Source of the DNA: Allomyces macrogynus ATCC 38327
Taxonomy: Eukaryota; Blastocladiomycota; Blastocladiomycetes; Blastocladiales; Blastocladiaceae
Direction of reading: 5' to 3'
NCBI GenBank assembly: GCA_000151295.1
Contig: GG745370.1
Coordinates: forward strand, 150,733-214,732
Length of the DNA stretch: 64,000 bases
The notes beneath the pieces were generated by a model. It had not been told where the DNA came from. It worked only from the letters and a program-made list of their open reading frames with translations, and ran no database searches. This document shows positions 41,906-62,371 of this stretch, piece by piece. Made by a program: the position numbers and the translations under genes. How positions within the stretch are numbered: the first letter of the stretch is position 1; every line of letters starts with the position of its first letter.

Positions 41906-44900
41906 CTACTTCAAGTTGGGCGTGATATCGTGCATCTTGCGCGGCGGACCGCCACCCATACTCGTCGCGCCAATGTTAGACCGCGCGCCGTCGCCGTAGT
42001 GCACGGCTGACAGCGTGTAAGACGCGCCGTTCGGACCACCAGCCGTCATGCGCATGTTGGACGGCGTCGTGCCGCCGCCCGTCGACTTGGACGCCGACCC
42101 GGATTTCGAGTAGACGAGGCAGTGCACCGACAGCGCGCGCACCCACTTTTGCTTGTCCTCCTCCTTCGAAAATTGAACCAGCCAGGCTGAGCTGTCGGCA
42201 CGAAGCTCCACGCACAACGGATAGCTCGGGGGGCTCGGATCGAACTGCAACGAGCGCAGCTTGAAGAGCTTGCCCTGTTCCGTGTTGTTGGTGAGCCGAG
42301 TGATGCCGAGGAAGCTAAAAACCAGAGGGTCAAGAGTCAGGATCAGGCGCGATCACCGTGCGAAGGCTTGGATGGCCGAAACCGTACCCCTCGAGCGCAA
42401 ACAGCGTGATCCGGTTCGTGTGCCACGTCTCAAAGAGCTTGTTGGCAACCTTGACGGGGTACTTGCCCTGCATCGTCTGCGGCTTGCCCGGAACGTGCTC
42501 GGCCGACGACGTGCCGTCGTTGGACGACCCGCCCTCGATCGACATTTTCATGCCCGTCTCGTTGGCCTTCTTGCTGTTCATGTACGGCACGAGCGCGATG
42601 CGAGCGAGCAGGCACACGTAGGCGAAGGCCGTCGCGTACAGGAGCACAAACGTCTTGATGTAGAAGGCCGCGAGTGCAAACGACTGGAGTGAACGAAAGA
42701 TAACGGGTCAGTGATCAAGTCCAGGACCTAAGAGTTGAGAGGTCAGGCCGCACCTCGGTCGAGAGGTAGAGGAACGGCACGACAACGACGCCCGAGATGA
42801 AGATGTTTTGGCTGTTCAGTGAAGACAAGGATCGGTCAGTCGGCGTTCGAGATCTAAAAAACGCAAGCCCGACCTGTGCGTACCAAGTGTAGGCGATGAA
42901 TTTGGCCTCGCGGAACGCCGAGAACGCCTTGCGCGTCTTGAACGCGAGGAACGTGACGACGAGGAGCAACACCGTGTTGTAGAGCAGCGACACCGTCTGG
43001 AAAATCGTATCGAGCGAGGCCGACTAATAGGTGGACAAAGCTTGCGCGTCAGCATCTGATGCAATGCGGGCAAAAAAAGGGCCAAGTTCTCATACCTTGG
43101 ACGCGCACTTGTACGAGACCGACGACGCCGTCGAGACCTGCGTGGGCTGCAGAGGCGCGAGCATTGTCCACGCGACCATGATCGCCGACTGGATCAGCAC
43201 AATCACAAAGCACCCGAGGAACAGGCGCGTGTTCGACAGGTGGTTGAGCTTTTGCAGCGCGCGGTTGTCAAAGACCTTCCAAATGCGGAACGCCTTGGCG
43301 GCCACGGCACTCAGCACGAGCTCGAGCCCAAACACAAACAGCCACGCCTGCAGGTTGCACGTCATCTGCGACGGAATGTCGATCCAGAGGAACACGGTCG
43401 CGAGGACGAGCACGAGACCGACGGCAATCTGAACCAGGAACGGCAGTGCCATCGACTTGACGGCGGCGTGGTCGCGCTGCATGTACAGGTAGACCGTGGT
43501 TCCGAGCACCATGATGATCAAAATGGCCGTGATGCCCATGACAACGAGACCGCCGGGCGACGTGTAATGCACATACGCCTCCATGAAGCTCGGCCGGTCC
43601 TTGGGGATGTCCGACTTGCCCGAGTAGAACTTGGGCTCAGACACCTTGGTCAGCGCGTTCGCGCCCTCCGTGTACTTGTAGACAGTCGTGAGCTTGCCCT
43701 TGTAGACGTTCTGCACCTGGTAGTCCGCTGTGCGGTCCCAGTGCTCGTCGAAAGCGATTTTGCCCGAAATGCCGTCAAACGGCGCGAGGAAATCCTTGAG
43801 CGAGATGCCCGACCCGTACTGGCGCTTGTTGATCGAGTCGGGGCTCTGCGACCCGGCCAGCTTGAGAATGCCGCGCGCGAGCGCGAGGTAGCAGTCGGCA
43901 AAGAGCGACGCGTAGTGGCCAATCTCGCCGCGCTGCGGGAATTTGGCCTTGTAGGCGTTGAGGAAGTCATTGTACTGCGGGCCTTGCTCGTTGGGGAACG
44001 CAAACTAGGAGCAAGAGCAAATAAATGGTCAGCGTCACATCCACGCAAGACCGCCGCTGCATCAGGCAACAGCCAACGCACCATGACGCCGTCGACGTTG
44101 GCGCGGTCAGAGTCCGTGTACTTGTTGTCCTTGCCCCACATGCGCTCGATAATGTCGGAAATGGCGTCGGAACCGACCCAGACCCAGTTTTCGTTGACCA
44201 TGTCAAGCTTCTTGGCCTCGGCGAGCATCACGATGAAGTCGCTCGACATGCCCATGAACACGACGACGCGCGTGCCAGAGTTGAGCACCGAGTTGAGCAC
44301 GACCGAGTAGTCAGCCGTCGCGCCGGGCGTGTAACTCTGCATCGTGGTGACCTTGAAGCCGTCAATCTGTGAGGCCGCTTCGGCAAACGTCGTCATGACG
44401 CCCGTTCCGTACGAGTCCGACGAGAAGATGACGGCGGCCGACTTCCAGGTCATGAGCTGGACAAACTTGGCGAGGAAAGCACCCTGGACGTCGTCGGCCT
44501 GGAGGGGGTCGCACAAACAATAACGTCAGCTTCGTGCGCAAAATTCAACGGGATAAACCGATGTGGGTGCGTACCGGAATCGTGCGGAAGAAGTACTGAT
44601 AATCCGACTTCTTGCTGAGCGTTGGACTGGTCGCCGACTAGAAGAAAAAGCGCACACACATTCAAAAAATCATCAGTTTTGTGGGACCACATCGCACACT
44701 CGTATGCAAGAACCAAGAAAATCGGGCGTACCCCACTGCACATCCACAAGTTGAAGTTGTTGCTCGCGAGCGCCATCGGGATCGTCTCGGCCGACATGAC
44801 CTCGCCGATAATGCCCACCGACCCGCCGTTGGCTGCGTCGAAGACCGACTTGACCGACGTCGACATGGAGCCCTGCGAATCCTTGATGTCGAGCGTAAAC

Positions 44901-47753: not shown

Positions 47754-50700
47754 TCACGACCCTCGACTATAGCTCCTCGCACGCCCGATCCCCACCAACC
47801 GGTTCCGATCCGTATGAATCACCGCCGGCGCCGTTACCGCAGGTCGCGACCCGGCCGCCGCCATCGCCATTCTCGGCGCATTCAACGCCGGCTCGGGCCT
47901 TGCCCGTGCCGCCGTCCCCACCGCCGGCGCTGTCGGCACCCTTGCCGCCGTATTCGCCGCCCACGCGGCCGTCGCCAACAAACTCGCCGCACTCGGCCGC
48001 CTTTCCCCCACCGCACCGCCGCCGCTGGACGGCGCGTCTTTATCGCCCGAAGACGACCGCAGCGACGCCGACCGCGTCCACACCTGGCAGTGTACGGCAA
48101 GCGCGCGCACCCAGGTCATTTTATCGTCGTCGGTCTTGAACTGGATGCAGTAGGTGACCGATCCGGGCGCCTTGATTTCAATGCACAGCGGCGGCGCGGT
48201 AAACGGGTTCGGATCGAATTGCAGCGACCGGAGGTGGAAGATTTTGCCGCGCTCGGTCGCGGTCGTGATGCGCGTCATGCCGAGATAGGATTCGAGCGCG
48301 AAGAGCGTGAGACGGTGCGTGATCCACGGTTGGAAGAGACGGCTCGTTAGCCGGACGGGGTACTTGCCCTGTTTGATGGAGGCGAGTGGAGGTGAGTATC
48401 GTGCGCTTGCAATACGCAAATCAAGAAGATGAGAGAGAAGGAGGCTCCGTACCGTCATCGTCGACGGCTTCCCGACGAGCGGCGCCCGCCGCCGAGAACC
48501 CGCCCGTCGTGTCCGAGACGCCATCGTCAAACAAGTCGCCAGACCCGCCGGCCTCGGCACTGCGCATCTGCTGCTGCTGCCGACGCGCACGCGCTGCGAC
48601 CACCAGGCTGAGCGCGATGCGACCGATCAGAAACGCGTAGGCAAAAGCGACGGCGTAGAGGACAGTCACCGACCGGATCAACCAGCTGGCGAGCGCAAAC
48701 TCGGCCTTGGAAATGAACATGAACGGCGCGAGCACGATCCCGCACAGGGTCACGTTTTGCGCAGTGTAGAGAATCGACGCGGATTCGCGGAACAGCGAGT
48801 GCGCGCGGCGCGTCTACAAACACGAGCGTTACACCATAAACGTTAGTTGTGCACATAGTCGAGAGCCCGAGAGGGAAACAAACTGACCTTGTACGCGAGC
48901 ACCGACACGAGCAGGAGCAACGCGCCATTGTACGCAACCGACACGGCCTGCAAGACCGTCGCGAGAACGCGGTTGTCGGCCGCGCACTCGTACGAAATGG
49001 TCGTCGACCCAAACGCCTTTGCGGGGCCGAACGGGCGCGAGCGCCGTCCACACGACCATGATCACGATCTGCACGGCCATGATGGCAAGACACCCGAGGA
49101 ACAGCCGGCCGTTGTTCAAGTGCGCGAGCTTGCGCAATTTCGCATTGTCAAAGACGCGCCAGATGCGCCACGTCTTGGCCGCGACGGCACTAATGACTAG
49201 CTCGAACCCGAGCACAAACGTCCACGCCTGCGCGTGGCACGTGCCGACCGTCGGCACGTCAATCGACAGGAAGACGGTGCTCAGCAACAGCACGAACCCG
49301 ACCGAGATCTGCGTCAGGAACGGCATCGCCATGTGCTTGACCGACGACTCGTGCTGGTTGAGGGCCAGGTAGAGGTTCGTCAAGACGACAACGACAATCA
49401 TGATCGCCGTCAGCGCCATCACGACAATCCCCGTCGCCGACGTCCACGTCGGGTACCCGAGCCGGTACTTTGGCACGTCCGACGGAATCGTGCTCGACCC
49501 GCCATAGAACTTGAGCGCGGCCGAACCCGGGACCAGTTTCGTGCCGTTGACCGGCAGCGTGAACACCGTCTCCTCCTTGCCGCCGTAAACGTTGACAATC
49601 GCATAGTCGCCGAGCCGGTCGCCGTTCGCGTCGTAAGTCACGACGCCCGACGTCCCGTCAAACGGGTCGAGGAAATCGGCCAACGAAATGGACGACGGGT
49701 ACGAGCGCTTGAGCACGGTCGCGGGCGACAATCGCCCGGCCAACTTCATGATCCCGCGCGCCATGGCGAACAGGCAGTCGCGGTAGAGCACCGCGTACCG
49801 GTGAATCATGGCAGTGGGGTACTTGGCCGCGAACCGCGTCTGGAACGCCGCGTAGGCCGCGCCCTGCTCGACGGGGAACGCGTAGAGCAGCCCGTCGAGG
49901 TCGCGGTCGGCGTTCGAGTACCGCGACTTGTCGGCGACAAGCGGGAGCAGCCCACTCAGTCCGTCCGACCCGACCCACGTCCACTCGTCGGAACCGAGAA
50001 TCGATACGGCGCGCGCTTCGCGCGCGAGGGCGACAAACTGGTCGGCAGTGCCGAAAAACATGACGACGCGCGTGCCGGCCGTCTTGATGGCGGCAATAGC
50101 GGGCGCATGCGTGCGTGGGTCGGTCGAGGAAAAGGACTGCGACGTGGCGATCGTGATGTTGCGTTTGGCGGCCTCGTCGGTGAACGTGGACATGAGATTG
50201 GTCCCGTACGAGTCGCTCGAGAAGAGCAACGCGACCGTGTGCCATTGGACGAGGTGGACAAAGCGTGCGAGCATGCGACCTTGAAACGTATCAGACTGAA
50301 TAGGGTACGGGGTGAGCATGGGAGTTCTACGTCATCGTGCGTATACAAAAAGCGAGCGCGTACTGGAATCTGCGGGTGGAGAAGCACGACAAGTTAGTCT
50401 TCTTGCCATACCGCGACACGCCAAAGTCGCAACGTACGGTACGCATGAAAAATGGAACGTTGCTCTTGTCGGATAAGTCGGGGTCGGTCACCGACCCTGA
50501 GCACTGCCAAAGCTGGAACTGGCTCGCTGAAAGCGCCATAGCCGTGGTTGGGCTCGACGACATTTCGCCAATGATCCCGACGGCGCCCGTGCGGTTAGCC
50601 ACAAAGACATTGTCGACGGCCGCGCTCATGGACCCGCGCGAGTCGCGAAACGAGAGCGAGAACGAGTGATTGCTGCCGGCCCATTGGTTCACGTCGTCGA

Positions 50701-59262: not shown

Positions 59263-62200
59263 ATGCAGCGTGCCAGGATGCACCGATATGGAACGAGCGC
59301 AGCTGCCCTTGTCGTATTCCTTTTGTCCTTGACTTTCCTCACCAACGCCGTGGTGCGCGCGCAGGGCGTCCGGCGAGGGACTCCGCGATGTCTCCAGCCG
59401 CTGACGGTTGCACCGCTGGGCTGGGTCGGGACCGCAACGGGCGCAGACACGATCCAGCAGGCGCCCGCCGATATTGTGCTTGAGGCCGATGCGTGGACCA
59501 GGTGCGGAATCGACGTGGGGTCGGGCTGGATCGGCATCAAGTACAACTAAACGTCCTCTATCTTATTGTTATGATTGAATAGCGCCAACTTGAGGCACGT
59601 CCAGTTTGCTCCGGACGAAACGCAAATGATGGGCAACTCACTCTGCGCCCCGCCCACAATAGCACCTACATTGCCGCAACGCTATTGCAGGACGTGATGG
59701 GCGTTAAGGTGACTGTACTCGAGTTTGGCGGGTCAAGCGGCACGTACCTGCGCGTCGCATCGGGCCAGGTGCATGCGAATCTCGAGGTCTGGCCCAACTC
59801 GAAGACTGCGCTCTACCAGCAGTTCATCGTGCAGCAGGGCGCTGTCGAGGACTCGGGCATGATTGGCTACGCGGCCAAGATCTCGTGGTACATCAACACG
59901 GCGATTGCCAATGCCTACCCGACGCTGATTTTCGACTCGTGGCGGTCCTACACGATGAACTCGGTCCTGCAATACTTGCCGGCGTTCGGGACGACGACGC
60001 CCGCGCGTAAAGCTGACGGGTCGTGGCTGTGCGATTCGGCGACGTACTCGTACTGCTCGAACGGAATTTTTGTGCCGCCGCAGTGCCAGGCCAACCCGTC
60101 GAGCTGCCGAGAGTTTTGGGTTCGTCGTCTGGCGGCACTCCACCACCCCTGAACTGCTTCGTGGCATGAACACCTCGTCTCTCTCTCTCCACGATTTCGG
60201 CTGCGTTTCGAAATGGACTGACGGGTTTCGCACGGACTGTACAGCACATGGAACCGAGCTACAGTAAGGGCGAGAACGAGCAGCGCATCGTGACGCTCGG
60301 CCTGAATCTCGTCGTAGTCTACCTTGGCGCCGATTTCACCAGCGCCGTCACACGTTGCGCCAACCAGAACAGCTACGCGTGCATCTTCTACTACTGGAAG
60401 CCCGAGATCCTCCCGTCGACCCTCTCACTCTCGGTCGTGTCGCTGCCCGAGTACAACTCGACGTGCTACTCGCAGTTCAGCGCGACGCGCGTCGGCACCG
60501 CGTCCAACAGCCTTGCCTGCAATTGGGCCACGGATTTGATCATGAAAATCTCGTCGGCGGGCTTGCAGACCTCGGCGCCGTATGTCTCGTCGTTCTTCAA
60601 GCAGTTTAGCCTCAAGGATCATGATATCAACTTCTTACTCAACGACTACGCGACGACGGGCGTCACGGAAACGACAGCGTGCAAGTGGATCACGTCGAAC
60701 CGCAACTTGTGGAACGCGTGGATTCCAGCGCCACCGGCAAACTACAGTGCGTTGGTTTTGGCATGGCCTTGATCCGGCTCCATGCCGCATCGTACTGATG
60801 CCTTCGTTCCTTGCATAGTCCTGTCGCTCGACGCAATGACATCGAGCGAGGCGCTTCCGATTCTCGTCGCGGTCCTTTGCGCGCTTGTCCTTTCCGCCAC
60901 GCTCCCGACGTTCTATCTGCTGTACCGCTACTCTGGCGTCGCTGCGGTCAAGGCGCAGTCGCCGAGGTTCATGCAGCTTATTGCTCTCGGCGTGCTCATT
61001 GTCGACTTGTCTATGGTGCTCGAAATTGTGTCGCCTAAGGTCACGGGCGTGTGCGCCGCGCGAATTTGGCTTCTCGCGCTCGGCTCATGCACTGTTCTTG
61101 GCAGTCTCATTGTCAAGACTGCGCGTATCTTTTTGATATTCGGGTGCGGGTTCAACATTGACAGCGACGCTCCGTGATCGTCCGCTCATAACTCGCTCCT
61201 CGTGTAGGAACCGCCGCCGCATGCAGTTCAACTTGAAGGATGCGCGGCTCCTCGGCGGCGTGCTGGCCATGGTTGCGCTCGATGTGGTCCTGCTGGGGGC
61301 ATGGACAGGTGCTGCCACACCATCGGCCGTCGTCTCGACCGTGTCAACCACCACCTACACATATTTGTGCAGCACACGGACTGATGCCGGCGGGACCGCG
61401 ATCACGGGGATTCTCGCCATCTTTCACGCATCGCAGTTGCTCGTTGCGTGCTGGCTCTCGTTCAAGATTCGCAACGTCGGCACGACCTACAACGAGTCCA
61501 AGTACATTGCTCTTGCCGCCTACAACATTCTTCTCGCGTGCATTGTTGTGGTTCCTGTCGCGGTCCTGCCTATTAACTTTCGCGCGCAGTTTGTGATCAA
61601 GTGCGTGTGCATCTTACTCGCGGTCGGCGGCGTGCTCGGGCTCCTCGTTTGGCGGCCGATTTTGGAAGTGGTTCTGGCCGGGTCGGCCAAACCCGAGACG
61701 CTTTACACGCTGGAGCCGCAGCCGAAGGGCAAGCCCGACCGCGGCATGAGCGTTCGCAACGCGTTGGCCAAGAGCGACAAGGGCGACGAGGGGATGCTGT
61801 GTGGATTGGTGCGGTTCTTTTCTCTCCCCTTACTATCAGCAACGTGCTGCTGAGTGCTTGCCCTCCATTCAGGATGCGCGTGTCGGCCCGCGATACGCGA
61901 TCAAGCAAATGGGCGGGCTGTTTCGGCAATGGGTCGAGGTCGATGTGGTCCTGCTGCACCACCCACTCCCCGCGCTCTTGATTACGCCGTGCAATTCGGT
62001 ACGAATTGCTCGTCCTGGTCGTTTTCTGTCTACACCGCCTTCACACACTGACGGCCTCTTTCGCTTAGCCCAAGGGCGGCCAAGCTTACATGTTCAAGGT
62101 CTACGCGTTCCCCGCCGACGGCGCGACAGATTGCTTTGTCTTGCGCGTCGGCGGATCGAGCTACCTCGTGCAGGCGAAGGATGCGGCCGATGCCGACCGG

Positions 62201-62371
62201 TGGATCCACGATATCGAGACCACGTTCAAGGCCGTGAACGCGAGCACGGTCGGTTCCGCGTCGCATGGGTCGACGGGTGGCAGTGGAGCACTGTCGACTA
62301 TCAGCGCTCCAAATGAATCGGCCGGGAGCCGGCGGCCACCGGGACCACAGCGGTCGGGGATGGTGGGCTAG
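59263..62371 (+). CDS. class C GPCR with OpuAC (glycine betaine-binding-like) ectodomain and PH domain (receptor 3)
   Basis: Signal peptide after ATG 59263 or 59278 (LVVFLLSLTFLTNAVVRAQG). The ectodomain is of the glycine betaine/proline ABC-transporter binding type (OpuAC): STYIAATLLQDVMGVKVTVL, ASGQVHANLEVWP with the family's EVW motif, and later CIFYYWKPEILPSTLSL with VVSLPEYNSTCY. Seven helices follow (LPILVAVLCALVLSA to GGVLGLLVWRPILEVV, with AQSPRFMQLIALGVLIVDLS typical of class C). The cytoplasmic PH-like domain runs YAIKQMGGLFRQWVEVDVVL to ADRWIHDIE. Exons: to about 59533, 59583-60119, 60245-60746, 60819-61143, 61208-61808, 61873-61998 and 62069-62371. The first intron's phase does not fit as read; the later ones do. 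The ligand could be a betaine or other quaternary amine, by family analogy only. Confidence 0.82.

What the first reader, a model, noticed from the sequence alone, without database searches (positions are those of the whole stretch)
59263..62371. A class C receptor whose ectodomain is a bacterial-type glycine betaine-binding module, with a PH domain inside
Seen: a signal peptide, an OpuAC-like two-lobe binding sequence with the EVW motif, seven class C helices and a PH-like tail, joined across short introns. Known: OpuAC domains belong to ABC osmolyte uptake, while class C receptors normally use ANF/Venus-flytrap modules of another binding-protein family. Inference: an osmolyte- or amine-sensing receptor made by swapping the binding module, which would let a zoospore sense host or environmental osmolytes and signal to membranes through the PH domain.
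Basis: partly seen in the sequence, partly recalled or inferred. Interest (0 to 1): 0.78.

Follow-up and report, generated by a model that had tools for sequence, protein, structure and literature searches.

The report
Fungal receptor with bacterial betaine-binding module
A zoospore-forming fungus makes cell-surface receptors whose outer sensing part is built like the bacterial proteins that grab betaine-type molecules; this kind of receptor was reported in 2012, but much of its sensing pocket still looks intact, so what it detects can be tested.

Summary
Window 59263-62371 (+) encodes one intact 854-aa receptor in eight exons: hydrophobic N-terminus, OpuAC-type binding module (45.2 bits, cut-off 21.2), class C seven-helix domain (135.5 bits, cut-off 33.5) and a divergent PH-like tail. 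A paralogue holds binding lobe and helices in one uninterrupted genomic frame. The architecture is not new: Krishnan et al. 2012 (PMC3251606) listed OpuAC in six class C receptors of Allomyces macrogynus, and parts of this genome match A. macrogynus proteins at 88-100%. Added here: by profile and by fold the nearest solved relatives of the module are TMAO- and DMSP-binding proteins; three of their four cage tryptophans are kept (W78, W127, W287) while the glutamate TMAO needs is not (I157); the genome has 19 such loci, 18 followed by a class C helix domain; a 12-nt microexon lies beside W78. Best reading: a GABA-B-like class C receptor gated by a betaine-like zwitterion or quaternary amine. 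Ligand, signalling and tail function are inferred. New member of a known kind.

The parts
59263..62371 (+). whole gene, start to stop codon, 8 exons, 854 aa
   Evidence: splice model keeps frame through seven introns; homologues align along its length
59263..59501 (+). exon 1: hydrophobic signal sequence (aa 13-31), first strand of the module, cage W78
   Evidence: donor AG|GTGCGG
59494..59496 (+). codon of W78, equivalent of TmoX W55 / DmpX W35
   Evidence: profile and hhalign alignments
59502..59582 (+). intron 1, GT-AG, 81 nt
59583..59594 (+). exon 2: 12-nt microexon CGCCAACTTGAG, completing S-A-N-L-S beside the cage
   Evidence: conserved in two C41 paralogues between diverged introns; raises the OpuAC score; residues present (P0010 as SAIL, P0016 as SANV) in 7 of the 10 Allomyces homologue rows of A1 that have letters there
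59595..59662 (+). intron 2, GC-AG, 68 nt; the same intron starts GT in paralogue L030 and GG in L024
59663..60119 (+). exon 3: rest of lobe I with cage W127, start of lobe II
   Evidence: Pfam OpuAC E 1.5e-6 on the open frame 59583-60149 alone
59790..59792 (+). codon of W127, equivalent of TmoX W102 / DmpX W84
60245..60746 (+). exon 4: lobe II with Y285 and cage W287, and the C-terminal part of the module
   Evidence: OpuAC E 0.059 on the open frame alone; profile match to 7yle and 4xz6
60389..60397 (+). codons of Y285-Y286-W287, equivalent of TmoX F220..W222 and DmpX Y200..W202
60819..61143 (+). exon 5: first three helices, ending in KTARIFLIFG
   Evidence: 7tm_3 match
61208..61808 (+). exon 6: remaining helices and start of the cytoplasmic tail
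   Evidence: 7tm_3 E 1.1e-22 on the open frame
60845..61646 (+). class C seven-helix domain (aa 413-658), includes one intron
61873..61998 (+). exon 7: N-terminal half of the PH-like tail
62069..62371 (+). exon 8: C-terminal half of the PH-like tail and the end of the protein
   Evidence: Pfam PH E 0.0071, 17.3 bits, on this exon, below the cut-off 25.1

Best explanation
[quoted passage not shown] Shown by sequence: one intact gene, both domain families, and conservation of three cage tryptophans. Inferred: a small cationic or zwitterionic compound with a methylated onium head (glycine betaine, DMSP, carnitine or choline class) sits in the cage formed by W78, W127 and W287 with Y285, the lobes close, and the closure is passed to the helices and to a G protein without a cysteine-rich linker, since Pfam finds none. 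The loss of the glutamate that TMAO-binding relatives need (I157 here) argues against TMAO; the base beside it (K156, Lys or Arg in most relatives) weakly favours a carboxylated ligand. The PH-like tail probably docks to the membrane or to partners inside the cell.
For: Pfam OpuAC 45.2 bits and 7tm_3 135.5 bits in one protein. A 7-sequence ectodomain profile finds DMSP-binding DmpX (7yle, E 2.2e-14) and TMAO-binding TmoX (4xz6, E 1.2e-11) first in the PDB; hhalign to those two covers 284 columns, Prob 98.6, E 1.1e-15. Foldseek on the model of relative P0002 ranks TmoX first (E 8.5e-14, TMt 0.75, rmsd 5.0), then a GABA-B-Gi complex and glycine-betaine-bound OpuAC. Cage residues named in the papers map to W78, W127, W287 and Y285. 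In alignment A2 (22 rows) W78 is W in 15 of 15 rows with a letter, W127 in 21 of 21, W287 in 18 of 20. Over 19 own-genome loci, the window's included, W78 is W in 12 of 13 read, W127 in 16 of 18, W287 in 18 of 19. One uninterrupted paralogue frame of 736 aa carries OpuAC (25.1 bits) and 7tm_3 (39.2 bits), both over cut-off.
Against: No binding or signalling data. The hydrogen-bonding Glu of TmoX (E131) and DmpX (E113) is not kept: Glu in 0 of 21 A2 rows with a letter and 0 of 19 loci. The fourth cage tryptophan could not be placed (W236 or Y242). The AlphaFold2 model is only moderate (mean pLDDT 70.8, pTM 0.47), belongs to relative P0002 and has no ligand. DmpX is highly specific although its cage resembles those of betaine binders (passages), so a cage alone does not fix the ligand.
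Confidence: 0.55

Rival explanations
1. The OpuAC fold was kept but re-purposed to another ligand, such as amino acids or peptides, within a broad chemosensory repertoire.
For: Glu replaced by Ile or Ser; paralogues are only 33-94% identical to the window's module over the main matches, which suggests varied ligands; W127 is Leu or Asp in two loci, W78 reads Phe in one, and W287 is a stop in one.
Against: Three cage Trp stay nearly fixed across Allomyces, Catenaria and Blastocladiella, and Y285 is Tyr or Phe in 18 of 19 loci.
Confidence: 0.28
2. Two adjacent genes, a secreted binding protein and a separate seven-helix receptor, merged only by the splice model.
For: No cDNA seen; the Catenaria protein P0023 is annotated at 258 aa with OpuAC and no helices.
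Against: Uninterrupted paralogue frame L010 1099-3306 holds both domains; 18 of 19 module loci are followed by a 7tm_3 locus on the same strand and the other runs into unread sequence; 15 of 22 database homologues carry both Pfam domains in one predicted protein.
Confidence: 0.03
3. The module does not bind a free ligand but acts as a structural or protein-interaction domain, or the gene is a decaying duplicate.
For: One paralogue (L026, second gene) has a stop at the W287 position; arrays are duplicated.
Against: The window gene is intact over 854 aa and its pocket residues are conserved.
Confidence: 0.1

Closest known systems
OpuAC-bearing glutamate-family (class C) receptors of Allomyces macrogynus, AMAG_01750, 04252, 14324, 14326, 15836, 17562 (Krishnan et al. 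2012, PMC3251606; passages seen)
   Same: same domain pair in the same genus; AMAG_14324 is 77% identical to this protein
   Different: the passages give the domain list; a term search of the main text found no 'pleckstrin', 'PH domain' or 'osmo'. The best A. macrogynus protein is 80% identical, so I could not tell whether this very gene is among the six
TmoX (4xz6) and DmpX (7yle), periplasmic TMAO- and DMSP-binding proteins, PF04069
   Same: two-lobe fold, collinear over the module, three cage tryptophans and the aromatic residue two before the last one
   Different: free periplasmic parts of ABC importers; they have the pocket Glu and lack the receptor's extra cysteine-bearing loop
GABA-B receptors
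   Same: best sequence match of the helices in the PDB (E 1.8e-34); no cysteine-rich domain (recalled for GABA-B; none found here by Pfam)
   Different: GABA-B uses an ANF-type module of another binding-protein clan and has no PH tail (recalled)
Dictyostelium class C receptors with BMP domains
   Same: class C helices on a non-ANF bacterial-type module (PMC3251606 passages)
   Different: other Pfam clan (CL0144, not CL0177)

Membership tests
class C GPCR (7tm_3, PF00003) | seven-helix domain over the Pfam cut-off | tested here: met
   135.5 bits against 33.5
class C GPCR (7tm_3, PF00003) | class C fold of the helix bundle | tested here: met
class C GPCR (7tm_3, PF00003) | couples to a G protein on ligand binding | not testable with these tools
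   needs an assay
OpuAC / betaine-type substrate-binding proteins (PF04069) | Pfam match over cut-off | tested here: met
   45.2 bits against 21.2
OpuAC / betaine-type substrate-binding proteins (PF04069) | aromatic cage of three or four residues (as put in PMC10030565) | tested here: met
   W78, W127, W287 plus Y285 by alignment; fourth Trp unplaced; geometry not measured
TMAO-specific TmoX group | glutamate that hydrogen-bonds TMAO | tested here: not met
   I157 at the E131/E113 position; Glu in 0 of 21 A2 rows with a letter and 0 of 19 loci
ABC importer component | works with its own permease and ATPase | not tested
   the module is instead fused to a receptor
OpuAC class C receptors of Allomyces (Krishnan 2012) | OpuAC ectodomain on class C helices in a blastoclad fungus | tested here: met
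   organism inferred
PH domain (PF00169) | Pfam match over cut-off | tested here: not met
   17.7 bits on the tail, 13.5 on the whole protein, cut-off 25.1
PH domain (PF00169) | PH-like sequence profile and strand-plus-C-terminal-helix fold | tested here: inconclusive
   9 of 9 tails match weakly, PDB profile hits led by PH entries at E 0.0011, strands then helix in the model; the tail was not folded or searched alone

The most novel reading that the evidence does not exclude
A eukaryotic GPCR subfamily of about 19 loci in one fungus senses betaine-like compatible solutes through a bacterial-type tryptophan cage, and in one subclade a gained intron has cut out a 12-nt in-frame microexon next to cage residue W78, so that including or skipping four residues (S-A-N-L) could retune the pocket by splicing.
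Probability: 0.2. Interest if true: 0.72.

Novelty: new member of a known kind. Interest (0 to 1): 0.42.

Why it matters
If the ligand prediction holds, this would be a GPCR that detects methylated onium osmolytes with the machinery bacteria use to import them, and it would give a directly testable ligand class for orphan receptors of zoospore-forming fungi. It also shows how class C receptors can exchange their binding module. The domain pairing itself has been in print since 2012, which limits the surprise.

Tried and rejected
First splice model: seven exons, 850 aa, joining exon 1 directly to 59663; replaced when homologues showed S-A-N-L between the two parts and a conserved 12-nt island was found in paralogues. 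An exon 5 end at 61173 was considered and rejected because 61143 restores the FGNRRR stretch seen in most Allomyces homologues.

Sequence search of the single ectodomain (first model) against the PDB: 7 matches at E <= 10, best 0.14, none a betaine-binding protein. The profile search succeeded.

Bacterial origin: the ectodomain profile found 2 proteins at E <= 0.001 among 5590 candidates, both fungal, and a scan of prokaryote genomes with two short patterns confirmed none of 47 matches. The module is too diverged for these searches; lateral transfer was neither shown nor excluded.

PH tail by fold: no PH entry is among the 50 rows or the 50, which other domains fill; this is not evidence against. 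The tail was not folded alone.

Fourth cage Trp: hhalign puts TmoX W177 near Y242-S243, while a gapped reading could use W236; unresolved. One search prints Q at W236 for the window itself, which I take as an alignment running into the intron.

Microexon pattern: found in 3 of the 6 C33/C41 loci; the other three (L023, first genes of L024 and L030) gave no match to either pattern, nor did L010, L011, L028 and L029.

A 3966-aa open frame reported for one OpuAC locus proved to be a stretch of N.

Literature: searches with OpuAC and receptor terms gave PMC3251606 as the one relevant title; by title, searches gave no paper on the ligand of these receptors (listings only).

Full report
What is there. 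The region 59263-62371 (+) reads as one intact gene. Eight exons joined across six GT-AG introns and one GC-AG intron give 854 residues and one terminal stop. Pfam finds 7tm_3 (135.5 bits), OpuAC (45.2 bits) and a PH match below cut-off (13.5 bits). A hydrophobic stretch at residues 13-31 is the likely signal sequence.

One gene, not two. Paralogue L010 carries OpuAC and 7tm_3, both over cut-off, in a single 736-aa genomic frame. In the own genome 19 loci, grouped by me from the 45 matches, resemble the ectodomain; 18 are followed by a 7tm_3 match on the same strand within 2500 bases, and the other runs into unread sequence. The genome gave 130 exon-level 7tm_3 matches, which group into 93 loci at a 1500-base gap; this is a rough count. 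A second single-frame locus, L025 2-2545, matched only 7tm_3 by Pfam, although its ectodomain aligns with the window's by tblastn.

Whose genome. Among the best stretches printed, C41 loci match A. macrogynus AMAG_14321 at 100% and AMAG_14322 at 95.7-99.1%, and a C74 locus matches AMAG_01751 at 88-96%. Over its length the window's own protein is at most 80% identical to the A. macrogynus proteins, and 87% to A. arbusculus GGF31_009025.

The family. All 22 homologues listed at E <= 0.001 come from Allomyces, Catenaria or Blastocladiella (each search scored only the roughly 8000 candidates sharing most words). All 22 bear PF00003 and 15 of 22 bear PF04069 in the precomputed annotation.

The binding module. 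The single ectodomain found no betaine binder in the PDB, but a profile of seven ectodomains finds DmpX and TmoX first, and hhalign covers 284 columns with them. For relative P0002, an AlphaFold2 model (mean pLDDT 70.8, pTM 0.47) has TmoX as Foldseek's top hit (E 8.5e-14, TMt 0.75, rmsd 5.0), followed by a GABA-B receptor and betaine-bound OpuAC. The papers name the pocket residues: TmoX W55, W102, W177, W222 with E131 and F220 (passages of PMC8918994), and DmpX W35, W84, W152, W202 with E113 and Y200 (passages of PMC10030565). The residue numbers in the aligned chains agree with these where printed. They map to W78, W127 and W287 with Y285, while the Glu position is I157 next to K156. Conservation: in A2, W78 15 of 15 rows with a letter, W127 21 of 21, W287 18 of 20; over 19 loci, 12 of 13 read, 16 of 18 and 18 of 19. 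The C41 arrays are near-duplicates, so these counts are not independent. In SAR11 TmoX the Glu-to-Ala change abolished TMAO binding, so TMAO is a poor candidate here. K156 is Gln in 3 of 19 loci, so a salt bridge to a carboxylate is only a suggestion.

The tail. Nine tails share ten invariant residues, among them R28, W30, W97, I101 and F105 of A4. Their profile finds PH domains first, at modest E-values, and each of the 9 matches Pfam PH at E <= 10, the window's below its cut-off. A weak PH match (13.5 bits) also lies downstream of an ANF-type class C receptor in the same window, so the tail may be common to these receptors; that the two belong to one gene was not shown.

The microexon. CGCCAACTTGAG (59583-59594) is conserved between diverged introns in the window and in two C41 paralogues; the next intron starts with GC, GG or GT in the three. 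In five loci of more distant paralogues (L021, L022, L025, L026, L027) the same residues are continuous with the following exon, which suggests intron gain in the C33/C41 clade, though only 3 of its 6 loci matched the microexon pattern. Skipping 12 nt keeps the frame. Annotated models P0001, P0005 and P0008 lack these residues; P0002, P0004, P0006, P0007, P0009 and P0010 have them or a close variant. Whether skipping is real or a gene-prediction fault is unknown.

Known or new. Krishnan et al. 2012 reported 78 glutamate-family receptors in A. macrogynus, six with OpuAC, and discussed a conserved flytrap mechanism (passages seen). The pairing is therefore known, and this is a new member. In that paper's main text 'pleckstrin', 'PH domain' and 'osmo' do not occur; the cage analysis, the 19-locus count and the microexon were not searched for there by name. 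The listings showed no other paper on these receptors by title. This is a limited search, as only open-licence papers are held.

Noticed in passing
window 43090-44525 (-) and 48829-50331 (-): Two class C receptors with ANF-type ectodomains lie on the opposite strand 9-16 kb away; a weak PH match (47754-48626) lies downstream of the second.
   Followed up: partly
window 59583-59594 and loci L024, L030: 12-nt microexon with a following intron whose first two bases are GC, GG or GT in three paralogues; the GG copy may not splice there.
   Followed up: partly
loci L024 and L030 (contig C41), L025/L026 (C74) and L027/L028 (C70): OpuAC receptor arrays occur in matching sets on different contigs or twice on one contig, as if from segmental or genome duplication.
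   Followed up: no
L026, second gene: Paralogue with a stop codon at the W287 position; possibly a decaying copy.
   Followed up: no
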